Positions 7,555-39,610 of a stretch of DNA of 64,000 nt are shown piece by piece. Under the pieces are notes generated by a model. That model ran no database searches, was not told the DNA's origin, and saw nothing but the letters and a program-made list of their open reading frames with translations. Within the stretch, counting starts at the first letter, position 1. Each line of letters starts with the position of its first letter. The translations under genes and the position numbers were made by a program. Origin of the DNA: Armigeres subalbatus (lineage: Eukaryota > Arthropoda > Insecta > Diptera > Culicidae); NCBI RefSeq assembly GCF_024139115.2, contig NC_085139.1, positions 104,881,935-104,945,934 on the forward strand. The letters are read 5' to 3'.

Positions 7555-7738
7555 CAGGCCTGGTAGCGGGTCACTTTTTAGTGACTTAGTCACTTTTTTC
7601 GGGTGAGTCACTAAAAAGTCTCTTTTTTCGAGCTCAAGTCACTAAAGTCACTTTTTCTCGCAAACAGTCACTATTTTCAACTATTTTGAAACTATTGACT
7701 AAGATTTTTTTAAAACTTAAACTTAGTATGATGATGAT

Positions 7739-8540
7739 TGTTACGCAAAATGCATAAAGCGCCTCCGAGCCCATTGTGTTTCCACCGTCAGCATCGCAAG
7801 ATGCAGATAGTAAGGATTATACGAAAATGAAACAAATCAATACATATAGGTATATCGAGTCTATACTCGGTGCGTATAGCATAGATAAGAAACAAATATG
7901 TATGAGTAGCGAAAGAAGAGTTTGTTTACCAAGTTGAAGTTGATAAAGCCATAATTATTCTAAAATCCTAAAATCCTAGCTACTTAAAATCTAGTTTAGC
8001 AAGTGAACTTATTTAGATCGCATTGATATTTTGCCATAGACCTGATCACGGGGAAATAGTGCACCTACAAGGTGAATTGAACTTAAAAAGATCTTAAACA
8101 CTAGTAGTACGAATTTACTTAGCCTATTTTATCACAGATACAAATCACAGTTATTTCGTAGTCACAGCTAGTGCTAAACCACGGATTCAGATCTCTGCAG
8201 TTAGGAACACCTATCACAAAACAAGGTAATCATCATTATTATAATGCTGTAAAAAAGAACATGCCAATAACGCAAAACCGAACTATACAGATAGAGATCG
8301 CAGTAGCTACCGTACGAGACCGCTTACCGGACGTTACGATTAAAAGGCACACTAAACGTGAGTAAATGAATGATAGAATATGAGTTTAGGATCGATATCG
8401 TTTATTATAAAATTTCCAAATGTTTGCTACAAATTTCAGGAAAAATTTAACATACAAGTCTAATAAAATAAATACAACGTATTTTGGGCGCGTTTGTTTA
8501 AATTCTCGGAAACCGAGTCTTGTTGCCGTTAACGGGAACA
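7739..8540 (+). repeat. BEL/Pao 5' LTR (802 bp)
   Basis: Starts TGTTACGC and ends GGGAACA. Nearly identical to 14840-15639. The bases after the end read AATTAAATTTTCTG, where the other LTR is followed by AATGGTGACCCCGACGTGATT, so the 17-18-base primer binding site is absent here. LTRs of this family drive and terminate transcription; I did not identify individual promoter boxes. Confidence 0.93.
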
Positions 8541-8567
8541 AATTAAATTTTCTGTTTAACTTCCGGA

Positions 8568-10620
8568 ATGTCAAGCGGAAACGTAGCGGGTGCGGGAATG
8601 CGTTCCAATAACAAAAGTGAATCTCCTGGTGAGGGGGCGAGTTGCGGAGTGTGCCGTCGGATCGACTTAGACTGTACTAATGGTCGGATGGTACAATGCG
8701 ATGAGTGTGATGTGTGGTTCCATTACGATTGTGTGAATGTGAACGACAGTATTCGGGATTATGAATGGAGCTGTAACGGATGCGTGAGGACATCGCTGGA
8801 TAAGCAACAGCGTGCCTTGAGTGACCAGATGGGACTTCTTGAGCAGCAGCAAAAGCAGTGGCAACAGGAGCAACAAAAACACCTAGAGCAGTCTGAGGAA
8901 CAGCGTAAGAAGCTTGAGCAGTGGCAGAAACAACAAGAGCTGCAGCAGCGAGAGCAGGAGCAGTTAAATCAGTTGCAGATGGGTAAGTTGCAGTTGCAGC
9001 AGCAGAAGTTGCAGTTGGAAGCGGGTACATCTGGACTCAAAGTGACCCAGCAATCGAACAGTGGTCCGAGGCAGACACATCGGGTTCAGATTGTGGAGAA
9101 GGTTGTTCCGGAGGCGCCAGCAGCAGATGGAGCGTGGAATATCGACCCGTTGCGAAAGGCAGTCGCCAATAATGGGAGACCTCTGGTAAAGCAACAAAGC
9201 ATCATCGAAGTCATCTAAGCGTTCTGCAAAACTTCGAGAACTACAAGCTCTGGAAGCAAGGCAGGTGTTGGAGAAAACACCTCGAAGAGCGACTAGCGCT
9301 GGAGCGTGAAATGTTGGAAGATAGTGACTCTGAGGCGGAAACGGACGCAAGTCTCGAGAAGATCAACGAATGGCTGGAGAAAACGGAGAATGCAGGCAAA
9401 GAAGCAGGGAACGCGATGGACGAAACACCCCTACCGGTTTACGACGAGCTTCTGCGAAAAACGGTTGTGCCGTCCGGTTTAGTTCCAATGGTGTCAGCAA
9501 ATTTTCAACAATCTACCGGATATTCTGCTACGATTCAGCCTCAGCTTCAGTCATGTGCCGCTCAGCAACTTGGCGGGAGTTATGCTCCTGGGGCCAGGTA
9601 TATGCAGCATTTGCGACCCGCCGGGAGCATCCCGGCATTTCTGCCGAGCTACCAACCACCAGTTTGTGGATATCCAGCCGTAATATCCAATTCGCCATCG
9701 ATGCCGGTATACACCGTAGCGTCTCAGCAGCCGATCAGGATGTCAACGTATCCGACGGTAAATTACCAGCATCAGTTCACCCAGAATCTCCCATTTTCCG
9801 GGGCTATGCCTGAGAACGTCGACCAACCACAGATAACGACGTCAACTCCACGACAGAATTTGGCCACATTACGGCAGCAATATCAGCCACCGCTGAATAG
9901 CAACCCTATGCCGCTGAATAGTGGCCACCTAGCTGCAAGACAGACGGTAAATAAAAGATCTCTCGAAGTTCGATGGGGATCCTGAGGACTAGCCACGTTT
10001 CATTGCAGCATACGAGCGAACTTCTAGAATGTGTGGTTTTAGGAACGATGAGCTGCTCGATCGTCTCGAGAGAAGTCTACATGACAAGGCATTGAACGCC
10101 GTTAAAGCCTTCTTCTACACCCCGACAACGTTCCAGTGATCATGAGCCGATTGAAAACTCTCTTTGGTAATCCAGAATCCATCGTGGAGACTATGGTCCG
10201 GAGAATTCGGATGATGCCGCCACCGAAGGCGGAGAAGATGGAGACCATTGTTGACTTCGGCGTCGCAGTTCAGAACCTTTGCGCGACTATACAAGTGTGT
10301 CAGTTGGACGAACGATTGTACAACGTGGCATTGCTACAGGAGCTTGAGGATAGCCTGCCATCGGCATTGAAAATGAAGTGGGCATTCCATCGAATGGAGA
10401 TTGGAGCTGCTACGTTATTGCATTTCAACGATTGGCTTGGGGAAATGGTTGTGGCATTAAATCAGGTGATTAGACCTGCTGTATGGACCAAACCGCAGAA
10501 ACCGGAAACCAGGATAGAGAAGAAAGTCCGGAAGGATGAGGTCTACGTCCATGCGCATTCCGTCCATCAGCAGGAAAAAGTCGATCGTAAAAAGTGTCTG
10601 GCATGCGGCAATATGTGATA
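8568..10620 (+). pseudogene. gag: BEL/Pao gag, frameshifted, with PHD finger
   Basis: Gag packages the element RNA into particles. The start at 8568 opens a 216-codon frame. Residues ~25-72 form a PHD-like zinc finger (CGVCRRID...CDECDVWFHYDCV...CNGC), a module seen in some BEL Gags, followed by a Q/E-rich coiled coil. The frame then breaks repeatedly: near 9190-9215, near 9275, and near 9955; a TAG near 9991 sits where a Trp would fit; another shift is near 10120; the last is near 10600, inside the CLACGN zinc-knuckle region. Segments 9311-9985 and 10136-10618 carry the displaced parts. So many lesions beside almost identical LTRs is odd. They may be sequencing indels, or the copy may have been mobilised by Gag supplied from other elements. 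Confidence 0.85.
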
Positions 10621-13600
10621 GCCTTGAAAAGTGCAGCAGTTTCCTGAAAATGTCGCCGAATGCTCGATGGGCGTTAGTGAACGAGAAGAAACTCTGTCGA
10701 AAGTGTTTGAAGAAGCACTTCAAAACATGTGAGATGAAAGTTCCATGCAATCAGGGAGGATGCATCTTTCTACACCACCGGTTGCTGCACGACGACAGCA
10801 AACACAACAAGCCGTCACCAAGCGCCCCAGCACAGAACGCGTCTGTAAATGCGCATCACAGCTCGTTGCCAAATGTGCTGCTGAAGTATGTGCGTGTTAC
10901 GCTGCACGGCAAAGGAAGATCGATTACTACATACGCCTTCCTGGATGCAGGATCGACAACAACACTGGTGGAACACAGTTTGTGGAAGGAACTCAATCTC
11001 AACGGCGAGAAGTCTCCGCTGTGCATTTCGTGGACAGGAGGGCAAGGAAGATATGAGCAAGATTCGGTTATATTCTCAGCAGACATTTCCAGTGCTTCAA
11101 AATCAGGACAGCGCTTCCACCTTCCGGAGGTGCATACCGTACGTAGCCTAGATCTTCCTGAACAGTCAATGTCAGCGACCGAGCTAGCGAAGCATTTCGA
11201 GTATTTAACAGATCTACCAATTGACTCTTATGTTGTAGCAAAACCCCGAATCCTGTTGGGAGTTGACAGCTCCAGATTGGAGTATCCACTCGATTCCAGG
11301 GAAGGAAGTGAGAACCAGCCGACGGCTGTACTAACTCGGCTAGGCTGGGTGGTCTACGGTCCGTGCTCCTTTCTGCCAGGACAAACGGATGCGAAAAACG
11401 ATGTTTCGTATAGCTACCACATCTGCCAATGCGAAGGACTGCATTCAGCAGTCAAGAGTTATTTCTCCCTCGATAGTCTCGGAGTACAACTCAATGGAAC
11501 ACCGTTGATGTCGAAAGACGACGAACGAGCGATGAAACTGTTACAAGAAAACACGGTTTTGCATAATAAACGATACGAGACCTGTCTGCTATGGCGATAC
11601 GATGATGTTCGACTACCGTCGAGCAAATCCATGGCCCTGAAAAGGCAAAACTGCTTGAGCAAGCGCATGGCTAGGGAACCAGTGTTGGCCAAGGCTCTTC
11701 AGGAAAAAATCTTAGACTACCAAGCGAAAGGATATATTCGCAAACTTTCAGCCCAGGAGGAAGCCACGTACTCTGGACGTTCGTGGTATCTGCCGATCTT
11801 TCCCGTGGTGAATCCCAATAAACCGAATAAACTTCGAATCGTCTGGGATGCTGCCGCTAAAGTGGGAAACCTTTCTCTCAATTCGTTTCTGCTAAAGGGA
11901 CCAGATCAGGTTACACCGCTTCAGCAAGTTCTCCAAAGGTTTCGTGAATACCGCACAGCGGTCTCAGGAGATATCCGTGAAATGTTTCACCAGGTTCGGA
12001 TCAATCCTACCGATCAGCATTGTCAACGATTCCTGTGGGATGATGGCGTCCTCGGAGGAGGTCCTTCGACTTACGTGATGGAGGTGATGACGTTCGGTGC
12101 AAGCTGCTCTCCAAGTAGTGCACAGTACGTCAAGAACTTGAACGCAGCTCGGTTCAAAGACCAGTATCCAGAAGCAGTAGCGGCGATATGCAAAGGAACG
12201 TACGTGGACGATATGCTCGACAGTGTCGAATCCGAAGCAGAAGCCGTGAAACTCGTGCGGGATATTTGTTATATACACGCAGAGGGTGGATTCGAGATCC
12301 GAGGATGGCTGTCGAACTCCAAAAAGGTTCTTGATTCTATGGGCGAGCAGAGGACACCACAAAAGTATCTGAACATGGATGGAGACTTGGCGACCGAAAA
12401 GGTCCTTGGAATGTGGTGGGACACTATCGGTGACACATTTACTTTCAAGATTCCAAAACGGTGCCAACAGAAGCTGTTATCCGGAGAGCAAGTCCCCACG
12501 AAGCGGGAAGTTCTACGGGTTTTAATGTCAGTCTACGACCCGCTCGGCTTCCTGGCGCATGTACTAATGTACTTAAAGGTTCTGCTCCAAGAAATTTGGC
12601 GTTCAAAAATTAATTGGGATGAACAGATAGGCGATCAGCTACTGGAGAAATGGAGAATTTGGCTTAACGTACTGCTTGAAGTTGAGACAGTTTGCATTCC
12701 TCGATGCTACCGTAAGATGACCTCATCGTCAACCGTGACTAACGAAGTTCAGCTGCATGTCTTTGTCGATGCCAGCGAGAAAGGTTACGCAGCAGTCGCC
12801 TATCTCCGGTTCGAAGAAGACCGCTCTGTGGAGTGTGCATTCGTTATGGCTAAAACCCGAGTCGCGCCACTGAAGTACGTCTCAATTCCACGACTGGAAC
12901 TCCAGGGTGCAGTGATTGGAACCCGTCTTGCGAAGTCTATAGGAGAAACCCATCGTATACCTGTGCAAAAAAGGTTCTTCTGGACCGATTCAAGGGACGT
13001 TCTCTGCTGGATACGTGCAGATCACAGACGATACAGCAAGTTTGTTGCTGCCAGGGTTGGAGAAATTTTAGAAGATACCGAGCTATCAGAGTGGCTGTGG
13101 GTTCCAACAAAAACGAACGTGGCCGACGAAGGTACAAAATGGCAGAAAATACCTGATCTCTCGCCATCCAGCAGATGGTTTAGAGGACCGGAATTCATGT
13201 GGCAGCAGAAGAGTGCCTGGCCAGTTCAACCGTCCGTTCATGGTGAAACTACCACTGAAATGGTAGCTACGATCAACGTCCATACCATTCGTGAACCAAT
13301 TCTCAATTTCACCAATTATTCTAACTGGCGCAGGCTTCTCCGGATTATCGCATATGTACTCCGATTCATGAGAAACCTGCGAGCAAGATTACAGCAGAGA
13401 ACACGATTTACCGGAATCCTCCAACAGACAGAGTTGATCGAAGCAGAACGATACATTTACCGTCAAGTTCAGCTGGATGCGTATAGCGAGGAAGTAGCTT
13501 TGCTGCGAAAGTCTAAGGAATCTGGAGGTAAGAAGACGGCTACAATTCCCAGAAGTAGTTCTCTTTACAAGCTCTCGCCGTATCTTGATGACCACGGAGT

Positions 13601-14858
13601 GCTTCGCATGCAAGGACGAGCAGCTGGTTGCCAGTTCGTCGATCACGACGCTGTCCACACCATTATTCTGCCAAGGGAACATCCGATAACCTCGCTAATC
13701 ATACGGTTCACCCACGAACGCTATCACCACCTCAACCATGAAACGATTGTCAACGAACTACGTCAGATATATCGGATCCCGAAACTACGAAGTTTATGCA
13801 ACAAAGTACGAAGACTGTGCCAATACTGCAAAAACATTCGAGCTCAACCGCAACCACCCGCAATGGCTGATCTTCCGCTGGCTCGTCTTGCAGCTTATTC
13901 TCGTCCATTCTCTTACGTTGGAATCGATTACTTCGGTCCAATTCAAGTCGTTGTGGGTAGGCGGATCGAGAAAAGGTGGGGCGTATTGATAACTTGCCTG
14001 GTGGTACGTGCCATTCACATTGAAATTGCACACTCCCTCACCACAAGTTCGTGTATCATGGCTCTGCGGAACTTTATGTGCAGGCGAGGAACACCCTTAG
14101 AACTGTTTAGTGACAGGGGAACGAACTTCATCGGTGCGAATCGCGAGCTGACTGAAGCGCTACAATCTCTTGATCAAGATTTACTGATGCAGGAGTTCAT
14201 CACTACGCATACGAAGTGGACCTTCCTACCGCCGAGTAGTCCGCACATGGGTGGTAGTTGGGAGAGACTGGTGCAATCCGTAAAAAAAATCCTGAAAAAC
14301 ATGCAGCTACCGAGAAAACCAACCGACGAAGTCCTTCGAAACAGCCTTCTAGAGGTGGAAAATATTATAAACTCGCGCCCCCTCACCTACATTCCCATTG
14401 ACGATGCCGAAAACGAAGCACTAACACCCAATCATTTTTTGTTGGGTTCTTCCGGTGGCTCAAAGCCATTAGTCGCCTACGATGGTAGCCCCGCTACGCT
14501 GGTAAACAACTGGAGATCTTCGCAAATCTATGCCAACATCTTCTGGAGACGTTGGTTACGGGAATACTTGCCATCTATCAATCGTCGAACAAAGTGGTAC
14601 TACCCAACAAAACCGATCGAAATCGGTGACGTAGTGGTCATCGCTGATCCAGACCTTCCTAGGAATTCGTGGCCAAAAGGTCGCGTGGTGAACGTGAGCT
14701 GTAAAGATGGACAAGTTCGTAGCGCAACTGTGAGGACACCCACTAACATCTATGTACGCCCAGCAGTAAAGCTTGCGGTCCTGGACGTCGGCGCAACCAA
14801 GAGTACACAAGAATCTGGACCTTGTGTACTGGGGGGGACTGTTACGCAAAATGCATAA
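10536..14858 (+). CDS. pol: BEL/Pao Pol polyprotein (PR-RT-RH-IN), intact
   Basis: A 1440-codon uninterrupted frame. The nominal ATG is probably not a real start: authentic sequence begins at about residue 27 (CDSLEKC), where the gag frame should continue. Domains in order: cysteine-rich Gag end (~27-77); aspartic protease with DAGST, Asp at 137; reverse transcriptase with YVDD at 556-559; RNase H region with FVDAS (~750) and FFWTDS (~810); integrase with an HH...C..C zinc finger and the triad D1131, D1193, E1243 (GIDYFG, SDRGTNF, GSWERLV); and a C-terminal BEL domain with YYPTKP. All catalytic residues I looked for are present, so Pol may be functional. Translation would depend on readthrough from the damaged gag. 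Confidence 0.93.
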   Translation: MRSTSMRIPSISRKKSIVKSVWHAAICDSLEKCSSFLKMSPNARWALVNEKKLCRKCLKKHFKTCEMKVPCNQGGCIFLHHRLLHDDSKHNKPSPSAPAQNASVNAHHSSLPNVLLKYVRVTLHGKGRSITTYAFLDAGSTTTLVEHSLWKELNLNGEKSPLCISWTGGQGRYEQDSVIFSADISSASKSGQRFHLPEVHTVRSLDLPEQSMSATELAKHFEYLTDLPIDSYVVAKPRILLGVDSSRLEYPLDSREGSENQPTAVLTRLGWVVYGPCSFLPGQTDAKNDVSYSYHICQCEGLHSAVKSYFSLDSLGVQLNGTPLMSKDDERAMKLLQENTVLHNKRYETCLLWRYDDVRLPSSKSMALKRQNCLSKRMAREPVLAKALQEKILDYQAKGYIRKLSAQEEATYSGRSWYLPIFPVVNPNKPNKLRIVWDAAAKVGNLSLNSFLLKGPDQVTPLQQVLQRFREYRTAVSGDIREMFHQVRINPTDQHCQRFLWDDGVLGGGPSTYVMEVMTFGASCSPSSAQYVKNLNAARFKDQYPEAVAAICKGTYVDDMLDSVESEAEAVKLVRDICYIHAEGGFEIRGWLSNSKKVLDSMGEQRTPQKYLNMDGDLATEKVLGMWWDTIGDTFTFKIPKRCQQKLLSGEQVPTKREVLRVLMSVYDPLGFLAHVLMYLKVLLQEIWRSKINWDEQIGDQLLEKWRIWLNVLLEVETVCIPRCYRKMTSSSTVTNEVQLHVFVDASEKGYAAVAYLRFEEDRSVECAFVMAKTRVAPLKYVSIPRLELQGAVIGTRLAKSIGETHRIPVQKRFFWTDSRDVLCWIRADHRRYSKFVAARVGEILEDTELSEWLWVPTKTNVADEGTKWQKIPDLSPSSRWFRGPEFMWQQKSAWPVQPSVHGETTTEMVATINVHTIREPILNFTNYSNWRRLLRIIAYVLRFMRNLRARLQQRTRFTGILQQTELIEAERYIYRQVQLDAYSEEVALLRKSKESGGKKTATIPRSSSLYKLSPYLDDHGVLRMQGRAAGCQFVDHDAVHTIILPREHPITSLIIRFTHERYHHLNHETIVNELRQIYRIPKLRSLCNKVRRLCQYCKNIRAQPQPPAMADLPLARLAAYSRPFSYVGIDYFGPIQVVVGRRIEKRWGVLITCLVVRAIHIEIAHSLTTSSCIMALRNFMCRRGTPLELFSDRGTNFIGANRELTEALQSLDQDLLMQEFITTHTKWTFLPPSSPHMGGSWERLVQSVKKILKNMQLPRKPTDEVLRNSLLEVENIINSRPLTYIPIDDAENEALTPNHFLLGSSGGSKPLVAYDGSPATLVNNWRSSQIYANIFWRRWLREYLPSINRRTKWYYPTKPIEIGDVVVIADPDLPRNSWPKGRVVNVSCKDGQVRSATVRTPTNIYVRPAVKLAVLDVGATKSTQESGPCVLGGTVTQNA
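14831..14839 (+). other. Polypurine tract of the BEL element
   Basis: GGGGGGGAC directly precedes the second LTR (TGTTACGC). It sits where plus-strand DNA synthesis is primed in LTR elements and is embedded in the last codons of pol. Confidence 0.7.
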
Positions 14859-15639
14859 AGCGCCTCCGAGCCCATTGTGTTTCCACCGTCAGCATCGCAA
14901 GATGCAGATAGTAAGGATTATACGAAAATGAAACAAATCAATACATATAGGTATATCGAGTCTATACTCGGTGCGTATAGCATAGATAAGAAACAAATAT
15001 GTATGAGTAGCGAAAGAAGAGTTTGTTTACCAAGTTGAAGTTGATAAAGCCATAATTATTCTAAAATCCTAAAATCCTAGCTACTTAAAATCTAGTTTAG
15101 CAAGTGAACTTATTTAGATCGCATTGATATTTTGCCATAGACCTGATCACGGGGAAATAGTGCATCTACAAGGTGAATTGAACTTAAAAGATCTTAAACA
15201 CTAGTAGTACGAATTTACTTAGCCTATTTTATCACAGATACAAATCACAGTTATTTCGTAGTCACAGCTAGTGCTAAACCACGGATTCAGATCTCTGCAG
15301 TTAGGAACACCTATCACAAAACAAGGTAATCATCATTATTATAATGCTGTAAAAAGAACATGCCAATAACGCAAAACCGAACTATACAGATAGAGATCGC
15401 AGTAGCTACCGTACGAGACCGCTTACCGGACGTTACGATTAAAAGGCACACTAAACGTGAGTAAATGAATGATAGAATATGAGTTTAGGATCGATATCGT
15501 TTATTATAAAATTTCCAAATGTTTGCTACAAATTTCAGGAAAAATTTAACATACAAGTCTAATAAAATAAATACAACGTATTTTGGGCGCGTTTGTTTAA
15601 ATTCTCGGAAACCGAGTCTTGTTGCCGTTAACGGGAACA
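14840..15639 (+). repeat. BEL/Pao second LTR (800 bp)
   Basis: Near-identical to 7739-8540. Instead of ending at a target-site duplication it is followed by AA and a complete primer binding site, the arrangement normally seen only after a 5' LTR. Confidence 0.93.
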
Positions 15640-17681
15640 AATGGTGACCCCGACGTGATTCCTCGCACCTTGGAACCACCCTTGCCCATAACGATGCGGT
15701 GATGGCGAGCCGGAATGATGCACTCGATCGTAACCATCTGCTCCAATTCCTCGACGATCTCCTGAATGCGAGCCTTAGCGGCCTCAATGCACTCCTTGGC
15801 ACCCTTGAGCGTCACCCGGTCACTGTCCACACCCGAGCGGGGGAAAGAAATCATCACGCCACCATATTCCTCCGAAATACGGTGCAGCACCTCGCCACGG
15901 CGAGCCACGAAATGCTTGTGGTGCCTCTGCTCCACGTTAATCTCATCCTCAACAATGTTGTCGATATTTTTGATGATCGACTCCAGCTGGGCCTTGGCCT
16001 CATCAACACCCTCCTTTTTCCCGATGATGGTGATGGCCTCCTTATCCTCGTCGTTGGGACCCGGGAAGATGATGCGAGCACCTGTTTGATCGCGGATCTT
16101 CTTGATGGAAGCGCCGTTCTTGCCAATGAGGAACTTGTGGTGCTGCGGTTTGGCACGAACCTCGGCAGTGTAGGAAGAGAGTTCCTTCTCGTTGGTCAGC
16201 TCGACCAGCTGAAGTTTAGCCCGTTCGACATCCTCCTTAGGACCACGGATGGCCACCTTATCGCTCTTCGATTCCGGACTGGGGAACTTGATTGAAACTC
16301 CACCGCATTCCTCCATGATGGAAGAAATCAGTTTGCCACCGGATCCGATCAACGAATTATAGTACTTGGGTGGGATCTGGATCTCCTCGGTGATGATGTT
16401 CGCTAGTTCTTCCTGAATCTTCTGAATACGATCGCGAGCTTCCTTAACGTTTTCCTTCTTGCCAGTGATGACAATCACTTCGTTCTTGTCACCCTCTGCT
16501 GGAAGATCGATTTTCGTTTGGGTTTCATCACGAATCTTCTTGATGTTGGCTCCACCCTTGCCAATGATGTACTTATGGAATTGCTTGAAGATAGGGACTT
16601 CCATCACGAAGGAGTTCTTCTGCAGTTCCTTAACGTACTTGGTCAGATACTTGTGGCACCTGTCAACATCTTCACGTGGGCCACGGATCTTAACAATATC
16701 CGACTTGTCGGTTGCTCCGGGGAAGATAATCTGCACCTGGTTATGCTTGTCACGGATTTCCCGAATCGTTTCGCCTTTCGCACCGATGATCGTCTTGAAC
16801 AGACGATGATCGATAACGATCGACTCTTCCTTTTCATTTTCCAGTTTCGCTATCTTTTCAAGCAGCTCCTGCTTAGCCTTTTCAACACCGACGGCCGGTC
16901 CTTCGATGCGGATCGGTTTCAAGTCCTTCTCGTCAATGTTGATCAAGACCTCGTATTCCTCCTTCATACGGTTGATGTTGGCTCCGTTCTTACCGATGAT
17001 GTGCTTGCAGTAGATCGGATCAACCACCATTTCGGTAAAGGTTAGACGCCCAGTGTAATCCTTGACCATTTTCTCCAGCGCTTCCGAAGAAGCTTCCACC
17101 TGATCCGGCGGGCCTTCGATCTTGATCCTGTCTTCGTTGAACTCCACATGTACGTTGGGATACTGCGCAGTGAATTCCTTAATATGGCCACCCTCGCGTC
17201 CAATAATATACTTGTGAATCCACTGGGGACACTCAAGCGTAGTTGTACGCACGGAGTTCGCTTTCTGGTACACAACGCTCAAAGCATTTCCGAGCTTGTC
17301 CTGGGGGCCGCGCAGAGTGATGGTATCGTTGGGAGAGTCACTAGCCGGCATCTCAACAGATACGCCGGTCATCGCCAAGATTTCCTGAATGGTGGAGCCC
17401 TTCGGACCAACGATGTACTTGTGCTGGGCCCGAGGAACCTCAACGCCTACACTGGTACACTTCTTTTCCATCTCCTTACAGATGGCTTCGATGCGTGTCT
17501 TCGCTTGGAGTACTCCTTCCTTCTCGCCGGTGATGATGATCTCATCCTTCTGAACCGACGGCGGCGGAATGTTGATCTTCGATCCGGTTTCCTCCATCAT
17601 CTTGCTGACATTTTCGTTGTGGGCTCCCATAATAAACGGATGGTGACGTCGGATGATGCTTTGTTCATGGCGGAAATGAAA
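15597..17681 (-). pseudogene. Vigilin (multi-KH RNA-binding protein) partial retrocopy
   Basis: Vigilin is a cytoplasmic multi-KH protein that binds mRNA/tRNA and ribosomes; the fly homologue is Dp1. The open frame runs from after a TAA at 17682-17684 to a stop at 15597, with its first ATG at 17630 (677 codons). Ten KH units repeat every ~70 residues. GxxG loops sit at residues 2, 75, 144, 213, 283, 357, 429, 503 and 649; the ninth unit has ARRG at 576-579, as vigilin does at this position. Full vigilin has ~14 KH domains and ~1200+ residues, so both ends are missing. The 2 kb has no introns, suggesting a cDNA origin. Residues from ~658 on come from the PBS and LTR (the ending spells ...NKTRFPRI). 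The lack of any stop implies a young copy or selection. Expression is unknown. Confidence 0.85.
15642..15659 (+). other. Primer binding site complementary to tRNA-Trp
   Basis: TGGTGACCCCGACGTGAT is the perfect complement of the 3' 18 bases of a typical tRNA-Trp including CCA. The family identity comes from memory of tRNA-Trp, whose acceptor GACC... and T-arm ATCACGTCGGGGTC fit. Read on the minus strand, bases 15650-15659 are also the vigilin codons for Ile-Thr-Ser. Confidence 0.8.
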
Positions 17682-17684
17682 TTA

Positions 17685-17930
17685 CGGTCCCGCTATTTAG
17701 ACCCTTCACAGAGAGCAATCTCATTGAAGGCGCGCCTTTTATCAAATCTTTCCTTGAGAAAACAGAACAGTAATGCTGTTAATTGGCCATGCATATCACC
17801 GGTAAAGCTACAACCCCGGGATTTAGCTCTATCTACAAGACCATTTCAATCTAGAGAAGTTATTCAGTATCAAGAAGTTCCGCGTGTTCCTCGAACTACC
17901 ATTGTTTACCAGTTCACGAAGAGTTAGTAC
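17685..17930 (+). other. Open frame of unknown origin beside vigilin
   Basis: Beyond the vigilin similarity (which ends somewhere in 17655-17690) the plus strand stays open to a TAG at about 17925-17927. The peptide ends ...REVIQYQEVPRVPRTTIVYQ. It has a balanced, exon-like composition unlike the surrounding AT-rich DNA, but I do not recognise it. The same frame continues upstream antisense to vigilin, so its true start is unknown. It could be a second captured transcript, part of the disrupted target, or chance. Confidence 0.3.
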
Positions 17931-18938
17931 ATCCATAGAACCCTAACTCGAACTTTTACCAGCAGTTAGTTCAGCCTAGGTCGATGGGCCCTGGTTTTAT
18001 AACTAATTGCTAGAAAATCGGTTTCCGCTGCACACATTTTAGCCTCAAACGAGAGGAATTTGAGTCTGAGGGTAAATTTTTTTGCAATTGGTAGAGAGGA
18101 CTAAATACGATAAATCCTTGAAACACCACAACTTATTGCTCTAGCTTGAAAAATGGATTAAGCTAGGGCTCGGTTTGGTAGATCTTACACCGTAAAACAC
18201 TACGTAAAAGTGATCTACCAGCTTTACGGGGGGAAGCCACCCATTTAACTAGCTGCTCTTATTGGCATTTCGTCAGTAGCTAATTGAAGGTATTCTACGT
18301 CACAAATTTTGTAATTGGTATACAGTCATGCAAGCAGGAGACTTGCCGATAAAAACTCAAACTTTATAGTAAGGGAAGGTAGGGAGATTGACCCCTGGGA
18401 GATTTGATACTCCCCACCTTTACCGAAAACTAAAGTAGTATTGTTATAGCGTATTTAGATCCTCTAGACCTAGAGTATAGAGTCTAGACAAATGATCATT
18501 ATGTGGCGAGCTATTTTTTTATTGACAACCTTATTTATTCTATTATTTACTGTGTTTTGTCCCTCCTAAAGATGTTTTTAGTGGCCACGCAAAATTTGAA
18601 CAACTTCTTCCAATAATGACCAAATGCTATCATTTTTTTCACAGCACAAAGCCATAAATATGCTAAATGATCTTCACTGATAAAAATGCCAACATTCCAC
18701 CCCAATTTCAGGAAATTTGGATGTTGAGTTGTTGCCTCAATATGAGGAGACTTGATTCCGTCATCCATACAATAAAAAATCTCAAGCGGCTATTTTTTTT
18801 TGTAAATTTGACAGATGTAATGACGAACTTGCTCTGAAAAAAAAAAACTATTGAGTAAGTATAGAAAGAAGATCAAGTATCCCCAATTTTGAAGATTGCA
18901 TGCGCTGTTGAATTCCAACTAAAGATTATACTTCCGTG
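17931..18938. other. No recognisable gene
   Basis: About 1 kb of spacer. It contains a short inverted motif around 18177-18225 (GGTAGATC...GATCTACC). The right boundary of the LTR-vigilin insertion must lie here or slightly further right, but I see no third LTR. Confidence 0.4.
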
Positions 18939-19677: not shown

Positions 19678-20215
19678 TTGAAACTCTGCACAGTTTTTCA
19701 ATTTCATCTAAATCGTCATTTTTCGATATCAAATCTTCATATTGAGTCACGACTAACTTTTCAAAAGGGTGTATGTGAAAATGGTTCAAAAATATTTAAA
19801 AAGCTGCACAGCAAAAACGGAATGTTCGATTGTTATGATTTTTTCAGCAAAGTTAGACAACTAAATGGTGATTATTAAGAAAATGTGCACAGTAAAAACA
19901 AATTTTTTTTGCCTTTAAAATATCATTTTTGTCACAAAAACTCAAATATCTCAAAACCCTATCTTTTTTCGAACGTAATTTTTTAGGGAAAACGGTCCAT
20001 TATATTAGCTATCTACCATAAAAATTTGGTGATGGTAAACTAATAAACAAAAAAGTTATGACATTTCAAACATTTCACAATTTTCACATTTAGTAAAAAA
20101 AATGTTTTTTCTGTGTAAGTTATTTCGAGAATTGCAGTTTGATGCAGATTTTATTGTTAAGGGACGTGATTTAAACAAGTTGTTTCCATGATATTTTGAT
20201 TTAATTATTCATAGC
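19678..20215. repeat. Left long inverted arm of the DNA transposon
   Basis: About 0.5 kb that matches the reverse complement of 22965-23515 nearly base for base, for example GCACAGTTTTTCAATTTC, AACGGTCCATTATATTAGC and GTTGATGC-type blocks. It brackets the transposase remnant. Confidence 0.85.
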
Positions 20216-20663
20216 ATCTATAAGAAACTTAGACACGATCCAGTGTTGTGATCAAAAGTATTGATAGTGTCATAATTTTCATTGCACGTGACTGGCGAAA
20301 AATTCTTTTAATAGTGTTGAAACCTGTTGATAATAACGTTGATAGAAACATATCAGAAATGTTATTTTTAAGACAAAAGCTGCAAAATCAAAAATTTATA
20401 TACACGTGTACGTCTATAGTTTACCTGCAAAAAATATACCTCTTAGAGAATAGACTTTATGATCGGGAGGAAACGGGTATCTTCAACAACAACAAATGCA
20501 TGATAGGTACATACCATGACAATGCTCACGAAAAGCAAAAAATTACTACTACTAAGGTTGTTAAAGATCTTATAGTATTTTTTTTCTTCAGTCAAGCAAA
20601 TGACACCAAACTAGTCAGGAAAAACTTAAAAGTGATTTGGTTTATTGAAATACTACGAACAAC

Positions 20664-22765
20664 ATGAGAAGCCGCTTTCTCAACTGTTGTAGGCCGTTTG
20701 ATGGAAAAAGTGTTCAAAAGAGTTACGAAATCTCACCGAAAGCACCATAGATAAACTGAAAGCGACTGGTTATGCTCCAATGTCCACATTGAATACAAAT
20801 TTACGCATTTGCACGTCCTGCCGTCTAAACGTTGACAAAAGAGCAATCTGTATATCATCGGTTGAGCAGAGCGCAGGAAGTTCGAGAACGACAGCAACTG
20901 AGGAATTGCCAGATGTATCGACAACAACTGAGGAATTACCAGAAGTATTAAGTGCTGAGAGCCTTGCCACCGTACCATCAGCGAAATCTGTTTCAACAAA
21001 TCAATCGGAAGATGAGTGTATCCAAAAGGTCAACATCGAACGCTTTAACGAGGGCATAGCTGGGATAAAAGTGACTCCGATTAAATGGAGTAAGATGGAC
21101 TACGTTTATTACCCGGAGAAAAATACCGTGAAATAAACGAAGCTGTACGAAGAAACCTCTTCAAATTAGGACCTGATGATGTGGAAAATACAGACTACGA
21201 TGAGGTAATTATAAATATGAAGGAAAGGTTCTCGAATGCAGCCACGACAAGGAAAGAAAAATATTGATTTTGTCGATGCTGCCAAGTTCGTGGTCTATTC
21301 AGGATGCCATTGATGAGTTCAAAACCAATAGAAATACAGTAAAAGAGGCAAAACAATTGAAGAATAACTGTCTTTCAACCAAAAATACTAGGTCTAGTAC
21401 TGCATTAACAGATGAGACAAAAGAAATAGTAGTTCAATATTTTGAAGACGATGAAGTAAGTCGAGCTATGCCTGGTCAAAAGATTATGTATCAGTAAAAA
21501 GATGGAAAGCGTCAAGCAATCCAAAAACGATTAATGATGACGACTTTGAAAGAAGCGTACACACGCTTCAAGGAAATTCACGATAATATTAAAATAGGTT
21601 TTCCTCATTTGCAAGCCTTCGGCCAAGGCAATGTAAGCTTCTTTCCAATTCAGGAACACATAATGTGTGTGTGTGCACAACCCATGAGAATATTAATCTT
21701 ATTTTACATAGTTTGAAAAGAATCAATTTAACAAAGGATATTAAAATGTTAACTGGTAGTCTTTTGTGTGAAAATACAACATCAAATTGCTATCTACGAT
21801 CTTGTTCGGATTGTCCAGATTCTTCATCATTGGAAAATACTTTATTCGCTGAGTTTAAAGAAAAATATATTGATCAGTTATCATTTGAGCAATGGGTGAC
21901 CACGGATAGGTGTGACATAGAAACTATTGTAAAACCTGTAGATGAGTTTGTGTCATATTTTTGCTTGAAATTAGAAAGTTTAATCCTCACGACTTCATTA
22001 AAACAGAACAATCCAGCTTTTTAAAAATACGAAAAATACATTACAAAATGGTGAATTTTTAGTCATTTGTGATTTTTCTGAAAATTACAGCTTTGTATTG
22101 CAAGATGAAGTGCAGTCCCATCACTGGAACGTACAACAAGCTACAATTCATCCATTCGTTATTTATTTTAATGGAAGTACGCAAATTGAACACTTAAGTT
22201 TTATTATAATTTCCGAAGATTTAAGACACGATTCAGTATCCGTAAACTTGTTCATTGAAAAAATGATTAACTTTTTACGCGTTGATAAGCATAAAGAAGT
22301 CAAAAAGATATATTTCATGTCTGATGGAGCAGCGTCGCAGTACAAAAATCGTAAGAATTTTTCGAGCCTATGTCAATTTAAATCAATGTACGGAATTGAT
22401 GCAGAATGGCATTTTTGCTACATCACATGGCAAAGGTCCTTGTGATGCTATTGGAGGAACAATAAAGCGCATGGCCACAAGAGCAAGTTTAGCCAAAGAA
22501 CGTGAGCATCCAATTAAAACTGCGAAAGAACTTTTGATTGGGCAAATCGTAGAAAAGAAAAAGATTTAACCAAATTATCATTTTGGTTTACTACTACTGC
22601 AGAGTACGAAATAACGGCTTCAGAGCTCAGCGAGCAATTTAATAACGCGAAAACGATCCCAGGAACCCAAAATTTCACTGTTTCATTCCATTGTCGGAAA
22701 ATAAAATTAAAGCAAAACTATACTCAAACTGTGCTGATAATAATTCAAAAGTGTTCGATATTTAA
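20664..22765 (+). pseudogene. Transposase of the long-arm DNA transposon, frameshifted
   Basis: The start at 20664 gives a Cys-rich N terminus (NCCRPFDGK), later continued by RICTSCR at ~20805, probably a zinc-binding region. Downstream pieces in three frames read in the expected order: IKWSKMDYVYYPEK; a helix-turn-helix-like NRNTVKEAKQLK; MPGQK/DYVSVKRWK; GTHNVCVCTTHENI; LRHDSVSVNLF; SDGAASQYKNRKNF; FATSHGKGPCDAIGGTIKR; and a C-terminal KLYSNCADN ending at TAA 22763-22765. This matches a widespread family of metazoan transposase-like proteins that I know by its HGKGPCD...GG signature; I cannot name its superfamily with certainty. At least five frameshifts or stops (near 20740, 21135, 21250, 21490, 22030, 22430) make it inactive. 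The acidic residues of SDGA and KGPCD are candidate catalytic positions. Confidence 0.75.
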
Positions 22766-22964
22766 AAAATTTGAATAAAAATAAATAAAAATAAGTATTA
22801 ATAAACTGTTTTCATGATATCATAACCCATACCAAAATTCAAACCCAAAACTCTTAGAGTTTCTATAACAACATTGTGTAACTGCCACATTTAATTTAAT
22901 ACTTAGGATAATATTAATTCATTTCTATTTATTTATACATATAATATTTATACATATAATATAC

Positions 22965-23515
22965 ATAATATCGATGAATACATAAATATGGAATATCATA
23001 AAAACAACTTGTTTAACTCACGCAAGGCCCTTAACAATAAAATCAGCATCAAACTGCGATTCTTGAAAAAAAAATACACGGAATTTTTTTTTGTTTACTA
23101 TGTGTGAAAATTGTGAAATGTTTGAAATGTCATAACTTTCTTATCAGTTTACCATCACCAAATTTTTATGGTAGATAGCTAATATAATGGACCGTTTTCC
23201 CTAAAAAATTACGTTCGAAAAAGATAGGGTTTTGAGATATTTGAGTTTTTGTGACAAAATGATATTTTTAAAGGCAAAAAATTTTTTTTACTGTGCACAT
23301 TTTCTTAAGAATCACCATTTAGTTGTCTAACTTTGCTGAAAAATCATAACAATCGAACATTCCGTTTTTGCTGTGCAGCTTTTAATTATTTTTGAACCAT
23401 TTTCACATACACCCTTTTGAAAAGTTAGTCGTGACTCAATATGAAGATTTGATATCGAAAAATGACGATTTAGATGAAATTGAAAAACTGTGCAAAGTTT
23501 CAACTCAATAGAAAA
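22965..23515. repeat. Right long inverted arm of the DNA transposon
   Basis: Inverted copy of 19678-20215. Outside it come GTGAC-rich words and the CCTG terminus at 23685. Confidence 0.85.
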
Positions 23516-36410: not shown

Positions 36411-36930
36411 CTTCCTCCAGATAGTCCTCCAGAAATTCCTCCGGATATTCTACCAGGAATTCCTTTGGATATTCCTCCAGGATTTCTGGAGAATGTCCAC
36501 TGGAATTCCGGAAGGAATATCCGGATGAAATTCTGAAGGAATATGTGGGGGAATTTCTGATGATATAAACGAAGAGTTTCTGGAGGAATGTCCAGAGGTA
36601 TTCCAGGAGGAATATCCGGAGGAATTTTTCGCTAAATACCCGGAGGCATTTCTGGACAAATGTCTGGAGGAATTCTTGGACGAATATCCGGAGGAATTCT
36701 TTGACGAAAATCTGGAAGAATTCCTGGAGGAATATCCGGACGAATTTCTGGAAGAATTCCTGTTGGAATTTCCGGAAGAATTTCTGGAAAATATCCGATG
36801 GAATTCCTGGTAGAATATCCGAAAAATTCCTGGAGGAATTCCTCGAGGAATATCCGGAGAAATTTCTGGAGGAATGTACAATGGAATACCTGGAAGATTA
36901 TCTGAAAAGGGTTGTATGACATTCGCCAGA
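36411..36930. repeat. GAATTCCT-type array 2b
   Basis: Continuation of the array at 34845-35065. Units such as GGAATTCCTGGAGGAATATC repeat with 12- and 24-base periodicity and keep frames open on both strands. Confidence 0.8.
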
Positions 36931-37199
36931 AAGTCATTTGCTAGAATGCTTTTTGCCAGAATGGACCATTCCCCAGAAAGCCGTTTGCCAGAATGCACCA
37001 TTCCCCAGAACTGGTCATCTTCTATTTTCCATGCACGCGTTGGACCAATTTGCGCAATAATTTATAACGCCATGAACTTTTGGCATAACTGTGAACAGCG
37101 TTAAAAGGGGGGCAACGGACATTTTCCATATTTTTTGTTGTTGTTTTCTAGTGAGGAATAAAACACCACACCGGTCTATAATAGAATTGAAAAGACGTT

Positions 37200-37960
37200 A
37201 TTCTTTCGAAGAAAGCATATATAAGCCGGGAATAGCCGCTTGTCCGAACTAAGGCAATGGCGGTTGTGATCCTTTCTTTCAAATAGGTGTTTGCCCAGAT
37301 TAAGGCAATGGCGAATTTCATCCCTTTTTTCAAAAAAATAGGCGCTTGCCCGGATTAAAGTAATGGTGGATATGATCCCTTCTTCAAAAGAAGGCGCTTT
37401 CCCGGCTAAAGGCAATGGTGGATGTAATTCCTTCTTTAAAAGTAGGTGCTTGCCCGGATTAAGACAATGGTGGATGTGATCCCTTCTTTAAAAATAGACG
37501 TTTGCCACAAATGAAGCAATGGTGGATGTGATCCCTTCTTTAAAAGTAGGCACTTACCCGGATTAAGACGATGGTGGATGTAATTCATTCTTTAAAAGGA
37601 TGTACTTGCCCGGATTAAGGCAATGGTGGTGTGTGATCCCATCTTTAAAAGAAGACGCTTGCCCTGATTAAGGCAATGGTGAATGAGATCACTTCTTTAA
37701 AAGCAGGCGCTTGCACAGATTAAGGCAATGGTGGATGGGATCCCTTCTTTAAAAGTAGGCGCATGCCGGGAATCAAGTAATGGTGGATATGATTCAAAAG
37801 ATGGCGCTTGCCCGTATTAACACTATGGTGGATGTAATTCATTTTTTTAAAGGAGGCGCTTGCCCGGATTAAGGCAATGGTGGATGTGATCCCTTCTTTG
37901 AAAATAGGCGTTTGCCAGAAATGAAGCAATGGTGAATATGATCCATTTTTTAAGACGGTA
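37200..37960. repeat. 52-bp minisatellite, about 14 copies
   Basis: The core GCAATGGTGGATGTGATCCC recurs near 37253, 37303, 37356, 37410, 37465, 37516, 37568, 37620, 37673, 37724, 37776, 37822, 37875 and 37926, a period of about 52 bp. The unit also contains CGCTTGCCCGGATTAAG and CTTCTTTAAAAG. Copies differ by a few bases each. Confidence 0.9.
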
Positions 37961-38020
37961 AATTCTTCTCCGATATCACGAACGTACGCACTTACCGCAG
38001 TGCGAATCCGACCACTACCT

Positions 38021-39255
38021 CGTTGCAGTATGTATGCGCTCAAAACTCTCGACGGTGTAAAACACGCGTCGGAGTCGTCCGTCATGCGCTAAACATTGGG
38101 CGGCTACAAGACGGTAGACTAGCCCAAGACTACGCGCAGCAGCTGGAAGTGGCACTCCCAACGGAACAGAAGCTAGGCGCAGCATTTCTTGAAGTTGGCT
38201 GGAGAGATATTCGACCCGCCATTGGAAGCACCGCAGCCGCTGCATTATGAACGGTGGCTCCGGAGGAGAAGAACGCAGCATGGGCGAGATTGCTGACAAG
38301 CCCCCAAGGGCGAAAGAGGCACAATACAAACGGGCGCGGAACAGACAAAACTCGATTTTTCAGAGGAAAAGTGCCAGCAGGAAGATCGAGACCGTGAAGA
38401 GACTGTACCGCGCTAATAACACACGAAAGTTCTATGAGAAATTTAACCGGTCACGTAAGAGCCACGTGCCACAGCCCGATATGTGTAAGGACATAAACGG
38501 GAACCTTCTTGCAAACGAGCGTTAGATGATCCAAAGGTGGCGGCAGCAACACGAAGAGCACCTGAATGGCGATATGGCAGACAACGGTGGCGGTATGGTA
38601 ATGAACCTAGGAGCACGCGCGTAGGACATGCGACTTACCAAGGTAAGTTACCAAGGTTTGGGAGGATGAGGTTCTGCCGCAGGAGTGGATGGGAGGTGTC
38701 GTGTGTCCCATCTACAAAAAGGGCGATAAGCTGGATTGTAGCAACCACCGCGCAATCACATTGCTGAACCCCGCCTACAAGGTACTCTCCCAAATTTTAT
38801 GCCGCCAACTAACACCAATTGCAAGACGTGGGGCAGTACCAGGCTGGATTTATGGGTGAACGCTCTACCACAGACTAGGGGCATTCTCGAGTCCCTTCGA
38901 AACGCGTAGAGAGGGTTACGGCAAAGTGATGGTCTTTCGTGTCTTCTATTCAACATCGCTTTGGAAGGAGTAATATGAAAGGCAGGGATTGACACGAGTG
39001 GTACGATTTTCACGAAGTTCGTCCAGTTATTTGGTTTCGCCGACGACACTGATAGCATTACTTTGAGAGGATGGAGGAAGCCTACATCAGACTGAAAAGC
39101 GAAGCTAAACGGATTGGACTAGTCATCAACATGTCGAAAACCAAGTACATGAAAGGAAGAGGCTCAAGAGAGGTCAATGTAAGCCACACACCACGAGTTT
39201 CTATCGGTGGTGACTAAATCGAGGTGGATGCTGAATTCGTGTACTTGGGCTCACT
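38021..39255 (+). pseudogene. RTE-like non-LTR retrotransposon remnant
   Basis: Broken frames run in order: the end of the endonuclease/linker region (KTRVGVVRHALNIGRLQD; ARNRQNSIFQRKSASRKIET; LYRANNTRKFYEKFNRSRKS; DMCKDINGNLL), then the reverse transcriptase (near 38690: VCPIYKKGDKLDCSNH and LLNPAYKVLSQIL; near 39030: FGFADDT-like), then at 39210-39250 the VYLGSL motif, where it is cut off by a GAATTCC array. Several internal deletions and frameshifts. Same family style as 33808-34392. Confidence 0.75.
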
Positions 39256-39610
39256 GGAATTCCGAAGGAATTCTTGGACGAATATCCTGGCGAATTCCTT
39301 GACGAATATCCGAGGAATTTCTGAAAGAATATCCAGTGGAGTTCTTTGTTGAATATCCAGGGGAATTCTTGGAGGAATATCCTGAAGAATTTCTGGAGGA
39401 ATATCCGGAAGAGTTCCTGAAGGAATATCCGGAGAAATTTCTAGAAGAATATCCGAAGGATTTCTTGAACGAATTTTTGGACGAATTCCTGGAGGAATAT
39501 TTAGAGTCATATTCGGAGGAATTCCGAGAGAAGTATCCGTAGTAACTTCTAGAGGAATATCCGAAGGAATTCCTGGACAAACATCCGGCTATAGCTGCAG
39601 GAATATCAGG
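39256..39610. repeat. GAATTCCT-type array 3 with 24-base periodicity
   Basis: The clearest array: on the plus strand 39336-39542 spells an 8-residue repeat (EEYPEEFL-like) and the other strand a Y/S/R/N-rich repeat. The 24-base unit is GAATATCCGGAAGAGTTCCT-like. The open frames follow from the periodicity, and I do not consider them genes. Confidence 0.8.

What the first reader, a model, noticed from the sequence alone, without database searches (positions are those of the whole stretch)
15600..15680. LTR-PBS-vigilin junction: a frozen reverse-transcription template switch
Seen: the second BEL LTR is followed by a perfect tRNA-Trp primer binding site, and the last ~9-10 bases of that site (CGACGTGAT, 15651-15659) are at the same time the antisense of vigilin codons Ile-Thr-Ser; vigilin continues without a gap. 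Known: LTR plus-strand strong-stop DNA ends in a PBS copied from the tRNA and must anneal to a complementary template; retrocopies joined to LTR sequence at short homologies have been described in animals. Inference: the 3' end of LTR-PBS DNA annealed to the ATCACGTCG stretch of vigilin RNA instead of its own minus strand, and the reverse transcriptase copied vigilin. This would be an LTR-mediated gene capture primed by a tRNA-derived tail.
Basis: partly seen in the sequence, partly recalled or inferred. Interest (0 to 1): 0.88.

Follow-up and report, generated by a model that had tools for sequence, protein, structure and literature searches.

The report
tRNA-tailed retrotransposon joined to vigilin copy
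In a mosquito genome, a mobile element's DNA ends in an 18-base copy of the tip of a transfer RNA and runs straight on into a spliced copy of a housekeeping gene's message, which looks like a fossil of the copying enzyme hopping from one RNA to the next.

Summary
The junction is in the assembly and was found once in its genome. The unit is 5'LTR - BEL internal region - 3'LTR - AA - TGGTGACCCCGACGTGAT (exact complement of the 18 3' bases of mature tRNA-Trp, CCA included; tRNA recalled) - antisense vigilin 15660-17644. It sits inside one copy of a dispersed repeat. The same genome's native vigilin gene (another chromosome) has a 63-bp GT-AG intron that is exactly absent here, so the template was spliced mRNA. 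The copy starts and stops inside exons. Native mRNA reads AUUACGUCGG at the joint: ten pairs with the tail's 3' end, one of them G.U.

None of 17 other LTR ends found (one is this element's own 5' LTR) carries that tRNA site, so the tail is not the family's primer-binding site; it looks newly copied from tRNA-Trp. The family's site appears self-complementary instead: 10-12 nt after the LTR pair with a site near the likely mRNA start (9 of 12 hand-picked diverged BEL elements), as in yeast Tf1. The BEL/Pao profile I read states tRNA priming.

Best reading: reverse transcriptase ran off the BEL cDNA end, copied tRNA-Trp for 18 nt, and used that tail to prime on vigilin mRNA. The order of steps is inference.

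The parts
7555..7738 (.). left flank: part of a dispersed repeat, the insertion target; similarity runs to about 7719, the last 19 bases differ from the repeat
   Evidence: similar to repeat copies L015-L017, where it lies next to the right flank
7739..8540 (+). 5' LTR of BEL element, 802 bp, TG..CA
   Evidence: direct repeat with 14840-15639; 1 substitution + 2 one-base homopolymer indels
8440..8450 (+). putative self-primer site in 5' LTR (GAAAAATTTAA), near the likely mRNA start
   Evidence: complementary to the post-LTR site of family members
8543..8553 (+). putative self-priming binding site after 5' LTR; no tRNA complement here; this copy pairs over 9 nt only
8541..14839 (+). BEL internal region; gag region (PHD finger) falls into three ORFs, pol ORF 10536-14858 with A17 peptidase, RT, DUF5641
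14830..14839 (+). polypurine tract TGGGGGGGAC
   Evidence: same bases before the 3' LTR in L028 and L030
14840..15639 (+). 3' LTR, 800 bp
15640..15641 (+). AA, the two bases after the LTR that also follow the 5' LTR
15642..15659 (+). 18-nt tail: exact complement of mature tRNA-Trp positions 59-76 (CCA included; numbering and tRNA recalled)
15650..15659 (+). ten bases that pair with native vigilin mRNA AUUACGUCGG (one G.U)
15660..17644 (-). spliced, partial vigilin retrocopy (sense on minus strand), 5 substitutions + 1 homopolymer indel from native
16060..16061 (-). exon-exon joint: native 63-bp GT-AG intron absent
17647..18918 (.). right flank: other side of the same dispersed repeat

Best explanation
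A BEL/Pao element was being reverse transcribed, probably in a virus-like particle. Its plus strand reached the end of the minus strand (LTR + AA). Reverse transcriptase then moved onto the 3' CCA end of a mature tRNA-Trp (or its 18-nt 3' fragment), copied 18 nt and stopped at position 59, just before the usually methylated A58 (recalled). The 3' end of that tail annealed over ten base pairs to spliced vigilin mRNA and primed about 1,985 nt of antisense cDNA, which stopped inside an exon. The composite entered a dispersed repeat with an intact left LTR end; the right, non-LTR end was joined without a clean 5-bp target duplication. Shown: anatomy, single occurrence, spliced template, pairing at the joint, absence of the tRNA site from the other LTR ends found, one target repeat. 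Inferred: the enzyme, the order of steps, the particle, tRNA versus fragment, how the ends were joined.
For: Tail exact to recalled tRNA-Trp 59-76 with CCA. LTR+tail only in the window; 17 of 17 other LTR ends found lack it. Spliced: 63-bp GT-AG intron removed exactly. Window keeps the tail's G at 15657 where native has A, as expected if the tail strand was the primer (or an allele). Duplex -17.2 kcal/mol by RNA parameters, paired through the tail's last base. Vigilin ends inside an exon. Both flanks belong to one repeat; 24 of 24 copies inspected run through the site. Two copies with both LTRs, and one diverged LTR, have perfect 5-bp duplications while this unit has none. Self-priming complementarity.
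Against: Single event; reads not available. The reference allele matches only 7 contiguous exact bases; the ten-pair count needs a G.U or another allele. The base at 15657 is synonymous, like four other differences, so it may be allelic. An end-to-end jump and an odd tRNA priming event leave the same sequence. The 18-nt length fits an A58 stop, but base 19 (T) would also match the tRNA, so the switch could lie one base later. The left flank's last 19 bases differ from the repeat, so integrase action is not proven. The tRNA sequence is recalled, not taken from this genome.
Confidence: 0.57

Rival explanations
1. One reading: tRNA-Trp primed the minus strand in this round, the tail is the ordinary tRNA-copied end of plus-strand strong-stop DNA, and that end primed on vigilin mRNA.
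For: Boundary AA|TGG lies exactly where a primer-DNA junction would be; tRNA-Trp looks like the primer of other LTR families here (31 copies of the 18-mer; 15 of the 29 others read lie one or two bases after ACA).
Against: 0 of 17 other LTR ends found has a tRNA-Trp site; the leader hardly pairs with tRNA-Trp (by eye); the family looks self-primed.
Confidence: 0.2
2. Nuclear end joining: an LTR-tail DNA end was joined at microhomology to a separately made vigilin cDNA.
For: Short homology at the joint; irregular right end and altered left flank.
Against: Needs an independent spliced vigilin cDNA; pairing reaches the tail's 3' terminus, as a primer requires.
Confidence: 0.12
3. LTR-LTR recombination: a solo LTR-tail-vigilin insertion recombined with a full BEL copy, so the two halves are of different origin.
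For: Two LTRs with one substitution would allow it; would explain a vigilin copy outside the element.
Against: Extra step; both flanks are two sides of one repeat, as for a single insertion.
Confidence: 0.08
4. A vigilin mRNA fragment replaced the primer at the PBS and was later copied into the plus strand.
For: Gives the same order of parts.
Against: No LTR end found has a tRNA-Trp PBS to pair with; would leave native A at 15657, window has G, unless the allele differed.
Confidence: 0.02
5. Assembly join or library chimera.
For: Assembly shows a homopolymer indel in native vigilin; no reads seen.
Against: A genomic assembly has no obvious source of spliced vigilin or of tRNA with CCA; both sides lie in one contig and in the same repeat.
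Confidence: 0.04

Closest known systems
LTR-mediated retroposition in metazoans (Tan et al. 2016; paper not held; seen through passages of review PMC5408686)
   Same: LTR retroelement enzyme, spliced cellular mRNA, joint at short similarity, partial copy; the review says it occurs in mosquito
   Different: There (by the review) template switching puts the mRNA into the element's cDNA with LTRs at both ends; here it hangs outside the 3' LTR behind a tRNA copy
PBS remnants at retroviral 2-LTR circle junctions (FIV, PMC3292463, passages)
   Same: DNA end carrying primer-site bases after U5
   Different: There 6 PBS bases in 4 of 8 clones of a virus; here 18 nt of a tRNA that the family's own DNA does not match, followed by a cellular mRNA
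Dead-end plus-strand strong-stop DNA of Ty3, and the Ty1/Ty3 model (PMC5371799, passages)
   Same: Plus strand extends into tRNA and is not used for transfer
   Different: Ty1/Ty3 are tRNA-primed; here the end primed on mRNA and was inserted
tRNA dimer next to the LTR of Culex cqgypsy_1 (PMC3286476, passages)
   Same: tRNA with CCA incorporated at the LTR/PBS border of a mosquito element
   Different: Two whole tRNAs head to head by the 5' LTR, no mRNA
Nodavirus RNA captured by a Bel/Pao element (PMC5177903, passages)
   Same: BEL/Pao reverse transcription joined to foreign RNA
   Different: Foreign part lies between the LTRs; no tRNA tail described in the passages seen
Tf1-type self-priming (named in passages of PMC6317226; details recalled)
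   Same: about 11 nt after the LTR pair with a site that would be the mRNA 5' end
   Different: In those passages in Ty3/gypsy and some Ty1/copia groups; here in BEL/Pao, and the mRNA start is not mapped

Membership tests
LTR-mediated retrocopy | copy lacks introns of the native gene | tested here: met
   63-bp GT-AG intron absent
LTR-mediated retrocopy | joint to LTR-element sequence at short similarity | tested here: met
   ten pairs incl. one G.U at the joint
LTR-mediated retrocopy | retrocopy lies between two LTRs of one element | tested here: not met
   vigilin is outside the 3' LTR; in 17600-64000 only one 24-bp match to the element (E 0.007) and two weak translated ones (E 0.03, 0.08)
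LTR-mediated retrocopy | target site duplication of element length | tested here: not met
   left ATGAT, right GACGT; two other copies have CCTGT and CCTTC on both sides
BEL/Pao | Pao-type A17 peptidase and RT in pol | tested here: met
   PF05380 1.1e-52; PF00078 6.2e-07, just above its cut-off
BEL/Pao as in the ICTV 2021 profile | 18-nt PBS complementary to a tRNA after the 5' LTR | tested here: not met
   no TGG in the 60 bases after the 5' LTR in 4 of 4 copies (L024, L025, L026, L035); profile text
Tf1-type self-priming | about 11 nt after the LTR complementary to a site in the LTR, kept by covariation | tested here: met
   9 of 12 hand-picked diverged elements, 7 of 13 leader-matched loci exact; permutation 0 of 2000, with a selection bias told in the report
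Tf1-type self-priming | the LTR site is the 5' end of the mRNA and is the actual primer | not tested
   only TATAAAA ~34 nt upstream and a preceding AG, read by eye; needs 5' RACE and cDNA-end mapping

The most novel reading that the evidence does not exclude
BEL/Pao elements of this mosquito are self-primed from their own mRNA start (like Tf1), so the tRNA copy here was not a primer: the enzyme hopped end-to-end from its finished cDNA onto the CCA end of tRNA-Trp and then used that tail as a ready adaptor to prime on a cellular mRNA. tRNA 3' ends would then be a general route by which such elements pick up host or viral RNAs.
Probability: 0.45. Interest if true: 0.85.

Novelty: new variant of a known kind. 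Interest (0 to 1): 0.7.

Why it matters
Capture of cellular or viral RNA by LTR elements is usually inferred from loose microsimilarity. Here one young-looking insertion preserves each step: cDNA end, tRNA copy of 18 nt, ten-pair priming, spliced mRNA. The test also exposed what looks like self-priming across diverged BEL/Pao elements, whereas the ICTV 2021 profile states tRNA priming; if right, that changes how a group of animal retroelements is thought to start replication, and gives a simple rule (pair the bases after the LTR with bases about 80-112 nt upstream) to test in any genome.

Tried and rejected
Native-locus insertion: rejected; native vigilin is on another chromosome without an LTR at this point, and tblastn of six vigilin relatives finds no other vigilin exon in the window. 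Exon-end explanation of the right boundary: rejected, native continues in the same exon; the flank beyond scores no better against vigilin than shuffles (339 of 500 reach it). The 95-aa ORF at 17640-17924 as a second captured RNA: no homologue; it lies in the dispersed repeat. A second element to the right: none found. An exact PBS deletion in the 5' leader of this copy: rejected once other copies showed a like leader. Viral and prokaryote collections: no match in viral contigs; the nine matches are in prokaryote records, about what chance gives (my arithmetic, ~7.5). A clean target duplication: not found.

Full report
WHERE. The window is C1:104881935-104945934 of a 1.34-Gb assembly (2,076 contigs; C1-C3 are 319, 465 and 430 Mb). 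The vigilin copy is closest to culicine mosquitoes: 93.9% to P0123 (unnamed source), 92.2% to Sabethes, 91.8% to Culex tarsalis. Species is inference: an Aedes-like mosquito.

ANATOMY. A BEL/Pao element has LTRs at 7739-8540 and 14840-15639 that differ by one substitution and two one-base homopolymer indels. Its pol ORF carries PF05380, DUF5641 and a weak RVT_1 match; a PHD finger lies in the first of three ORFs of the gag region. After the 3' LTR come AA, then TGGTGACCCCGACGTGAT (15642-15659), then antisense vigilin. A tRNA-Trp sequence typed from recall folds as tRNA-Trp(CCA), and its last 18 bases are the exact complement; its next base, A58, would give T, which the window also has. The 5' LTR is not followed by this site.

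NATIVE GENE. Searching the same genome with 15600-17700 found native vigilin at C2:46873636-46875695, minus strand, in two pieces. The gap is a 63-bp intron beginning GTGAGT and ending ATTTTAG on the sense strand; the window joins the exons exactly at 16060/16061. Weaker, indirect support: of the 120 relatives listed, 32 stop matching the copy before codon 676. 26 of these 32 proteins end within 47 residues of the stop, as a gene model running into an intron would: 10 at codon 672, 2 at 673, 7 at 617, 2 at 578, one each at 541, 607, 627, 628 and 644. The other 6 go on for more than 250 residues and say nothing about introns. The one at 541 (P0041, 82%) sits at the native intron. Between 15660 and 17644 the copy differs from native by five substitutions, four of them synonymous, and one homopolymer indel. 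At two of the four synonymous sites a second vigilin copy (C849) has the window's base, at two the native base, so some look allelic. The one amino-acid change (Q to R, 15664) is five bases from the tail.

THE JOINT. Native antisense reads ...AACTCCGACGTAATTCCTTGC; the window reads ...AATGGTGACCCCGACGTGATTCCTCGC. The tail shares CCGACGT, then has G where native has A, then AT. Against mRNA AUUACGUCGG this is ten consecutive pairs with one G.U, reaching the last base of the tail, plus three pairs beyond one mismatch, -17.2 kcal/mol with RNA parameters. The window keeps the tail's base at 15657. That is expected if the tail strand was the primer, though an allele with ATC would also explain it, since that change is synonymous too. 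Against chance: 22 of 29 printed relatives have ITS here, five VTA, one VTS, one ITA. Codon frequencies in the copy give 0.67 x 0.21 x 0.31, about 4%, for ATC ACG TCG given ITS. Elsewhere in the copy the longest match to the tail is 6 nt.

THE TAIL IS NOT THE ELEMENT'S PBS. A search with 15560-15720 scored 19 of 19 candidates (its first look is heuristic, so counts are lower bounds): the window, native vigilin, and 17 other LTR ends, one of them the window's own 5' LTR. None of the 17 continues into the tail: 6 stop three bases after the LTR end, 1 one base after, 8 at the end, 1 one base before, 1 ten bases before. Two copies with both LTRs about 7 kb apart have 5-bp target duplications (CCTGT, CCTTC) and the leader AATTAAATTTTTCGTTTA right after the 5' LTR; a diverged LTR (79.6%) has GGGCG on both sides. 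The 18-mer occurs 31 times in the genome against 0 for the reversed control. I read 30 of the 31, the window among them: in 15 of the 29 others it lies one or two bases after ACA, as a PBS would, and none of the 29 has this LTR or vigilin in the ~3 kb held. Whether these are PBSs was not tested further. So tRNA-Trp is probably a primer in this genome, but not of this family.

SELF-PRIMING. The leader site TTAAATTTTTC is complementary over 11 nt to GAAAAATTTAA in the LTR, 101 nt before its end; 4 of 300 shuffled LTRs reach 11, so one family alone proves little. This LTR site follows TCAG and lies about 34 nt after TATAAAA (read by eye). The window's own 5' leader pairs over 9 nt only. Set A: a pattern search for the leader gave 13 loci; the pattern fixes the leader, so only the LTR partner is informative. 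7 of 13 have an exact 11-nt partner, 2 a shorter one at the same place (8 and 9 nt), 4 none. In the seven, C-type leaders pair with GG-type and T-type with GA-type sites; L066 (T-type leader, GG-type site) breaks the rule with one G.U. Set B: from 150 gag matches I hand-picked 12 diverged ones, mostly with long frames, and fetched 531 nt before each. 9 of 12 have a perfect 10-12-nt partner; 3 (L132, L133, L137) have none of 9 or more in the 330 nt searched. Length alone is not decisive: the longest match in 100 shuffles per locus was 9-13, and in L127, L129 and L135 it equalled or exceeded the real one. Position and covariation are the stronger evidence. In all nine the LTR partner follows AG and the leader site ends in C before GTTT, and the pairs differ in sequence, for example GACAATTATAA/TTATAATTGTC and GAAAATAATAA/TTATTATTTTC. 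A permutation test used 22 loci (10 of the 13 of set A; L063, L073 and L074 dropped; and the 12 of set B). 19 gave a site, making 12 distinct pairs, among them two the script anchored badly (L066, L069) and one without a partner (L070). Mean pairing was 9.67 of 11 against 7.59 for permuted partners; 0 of 2000 permutations reached it. The script took the best-pairing AG site per locus, which leans toward the observed pairing. I take this as good evidence for Tf1-like self-priming; the mRNA start itself is not mapped.

TARGET. Both flanks belong to one dispersed repeat. 24 of 24 copies inspected (chosen from the right-flank matches) run on through the site as [A/T]AACTTAGCTTTATGTATC[C/T]GTC[A/T]GATGATGC. 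The window has ..AAACTTAGTATGATGATGAT before the LTR and GACGTCGGATGATGC after vigilin. There is no clean 5-bp duplication; vigilin's last bases ATGGT differ from the left ATGAT by one. No further LTR was found to the right.

MECHANISM. The simplest order is: plus strand ends at LTR-AA (perhaps plus T); end-to-end switch to tRNA-Trp; 18 nt copied; tail primes on vigilin mRNA; about 1,985 nt copied; insertion. An 18-nt 3' tRNA fragment would serve as well as whole tRNA. Whether tRNA-Trp was instead an abnormal primer cannot be told from the sequence.

LITERATURE. Seen as passages: PMC5408686, PMC5177903, PMC3292463, PMC5371799, PMC7472051, PMC3630058, PMC3212995, PMC5497376, PMC3286476, PMC10886601, PMC6317226, PMC3601003, PMC5445492. 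Whole text: PMC8742986, which gives BEL/Pao an 18-nt PBS for tRNA-Arg or tRNA-Gly and tRNA-primed replication. In the Anopheles gambiae survey a Pao-Bel cluster had a program-predicted PBS for asparagine (59). PMC3118150 holds none of the five terms asked (primer binding, tRNA, self-prim, PBS, PHD) in its main text (134). Tan et al. 2016 is not held. In ten searches I saw listings only, at most 20 papers each (20 of 2,018); no title or abstract start listed reports self-priming in BEL/Pao or a tRNA-tailed mRNA capture. They cover open-licence papers only.

VERDICT. Observation confirmed; interpretation right about RNA capture primed by a tRNA-derived tail, wrong about the tail being the element's PBS.

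Noticed in passing
8440-8450 with 8543-8553; loci L064-L075, L126-L136: Self-complementary site after the LTR with covariation across diverged BEL elements, pointing to Tf1-like self-priming in BEL/Pao.
   Followed up: yes
L019 (C849:29000-33600): A second, partial vigilin copy, 99.1% to native over 1,884 bp, ending abruptly in other sequence; haplotig or another duplication, not resolved.
   Followed up: partly
L096-L125: 31 genome copies of the tRNA-Trp 18-mer (30 read), about half placed like primer sites of other LTR families.
   Followed up: partly
15664: The only amino-acid change in the vigilin copy lies five bases beyond the tail, possibly a copying error just after priming.
   Followed up: partly
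L018 against window 16840-16870: Native vigilin in the assembly lacks one base in a T run present in the window copy, probably an assembly error.
   Followed up: no
36492-39530: Arrays of a 12-bp unit, and a 52-bp unit at 37331-38005.
   Followed up: no
19678-23503: Long inverted repeat whose arms are mostly 96-99% alike (one piece 79%) with about 3.1-3.6 kb between, as in a fold-back element.
   Followed up: no
17640-17924: A 95-aa open stretch starting at the vigilin/repeat border without homologues found; lies in the dispersed repeat.
   Followed up: yes
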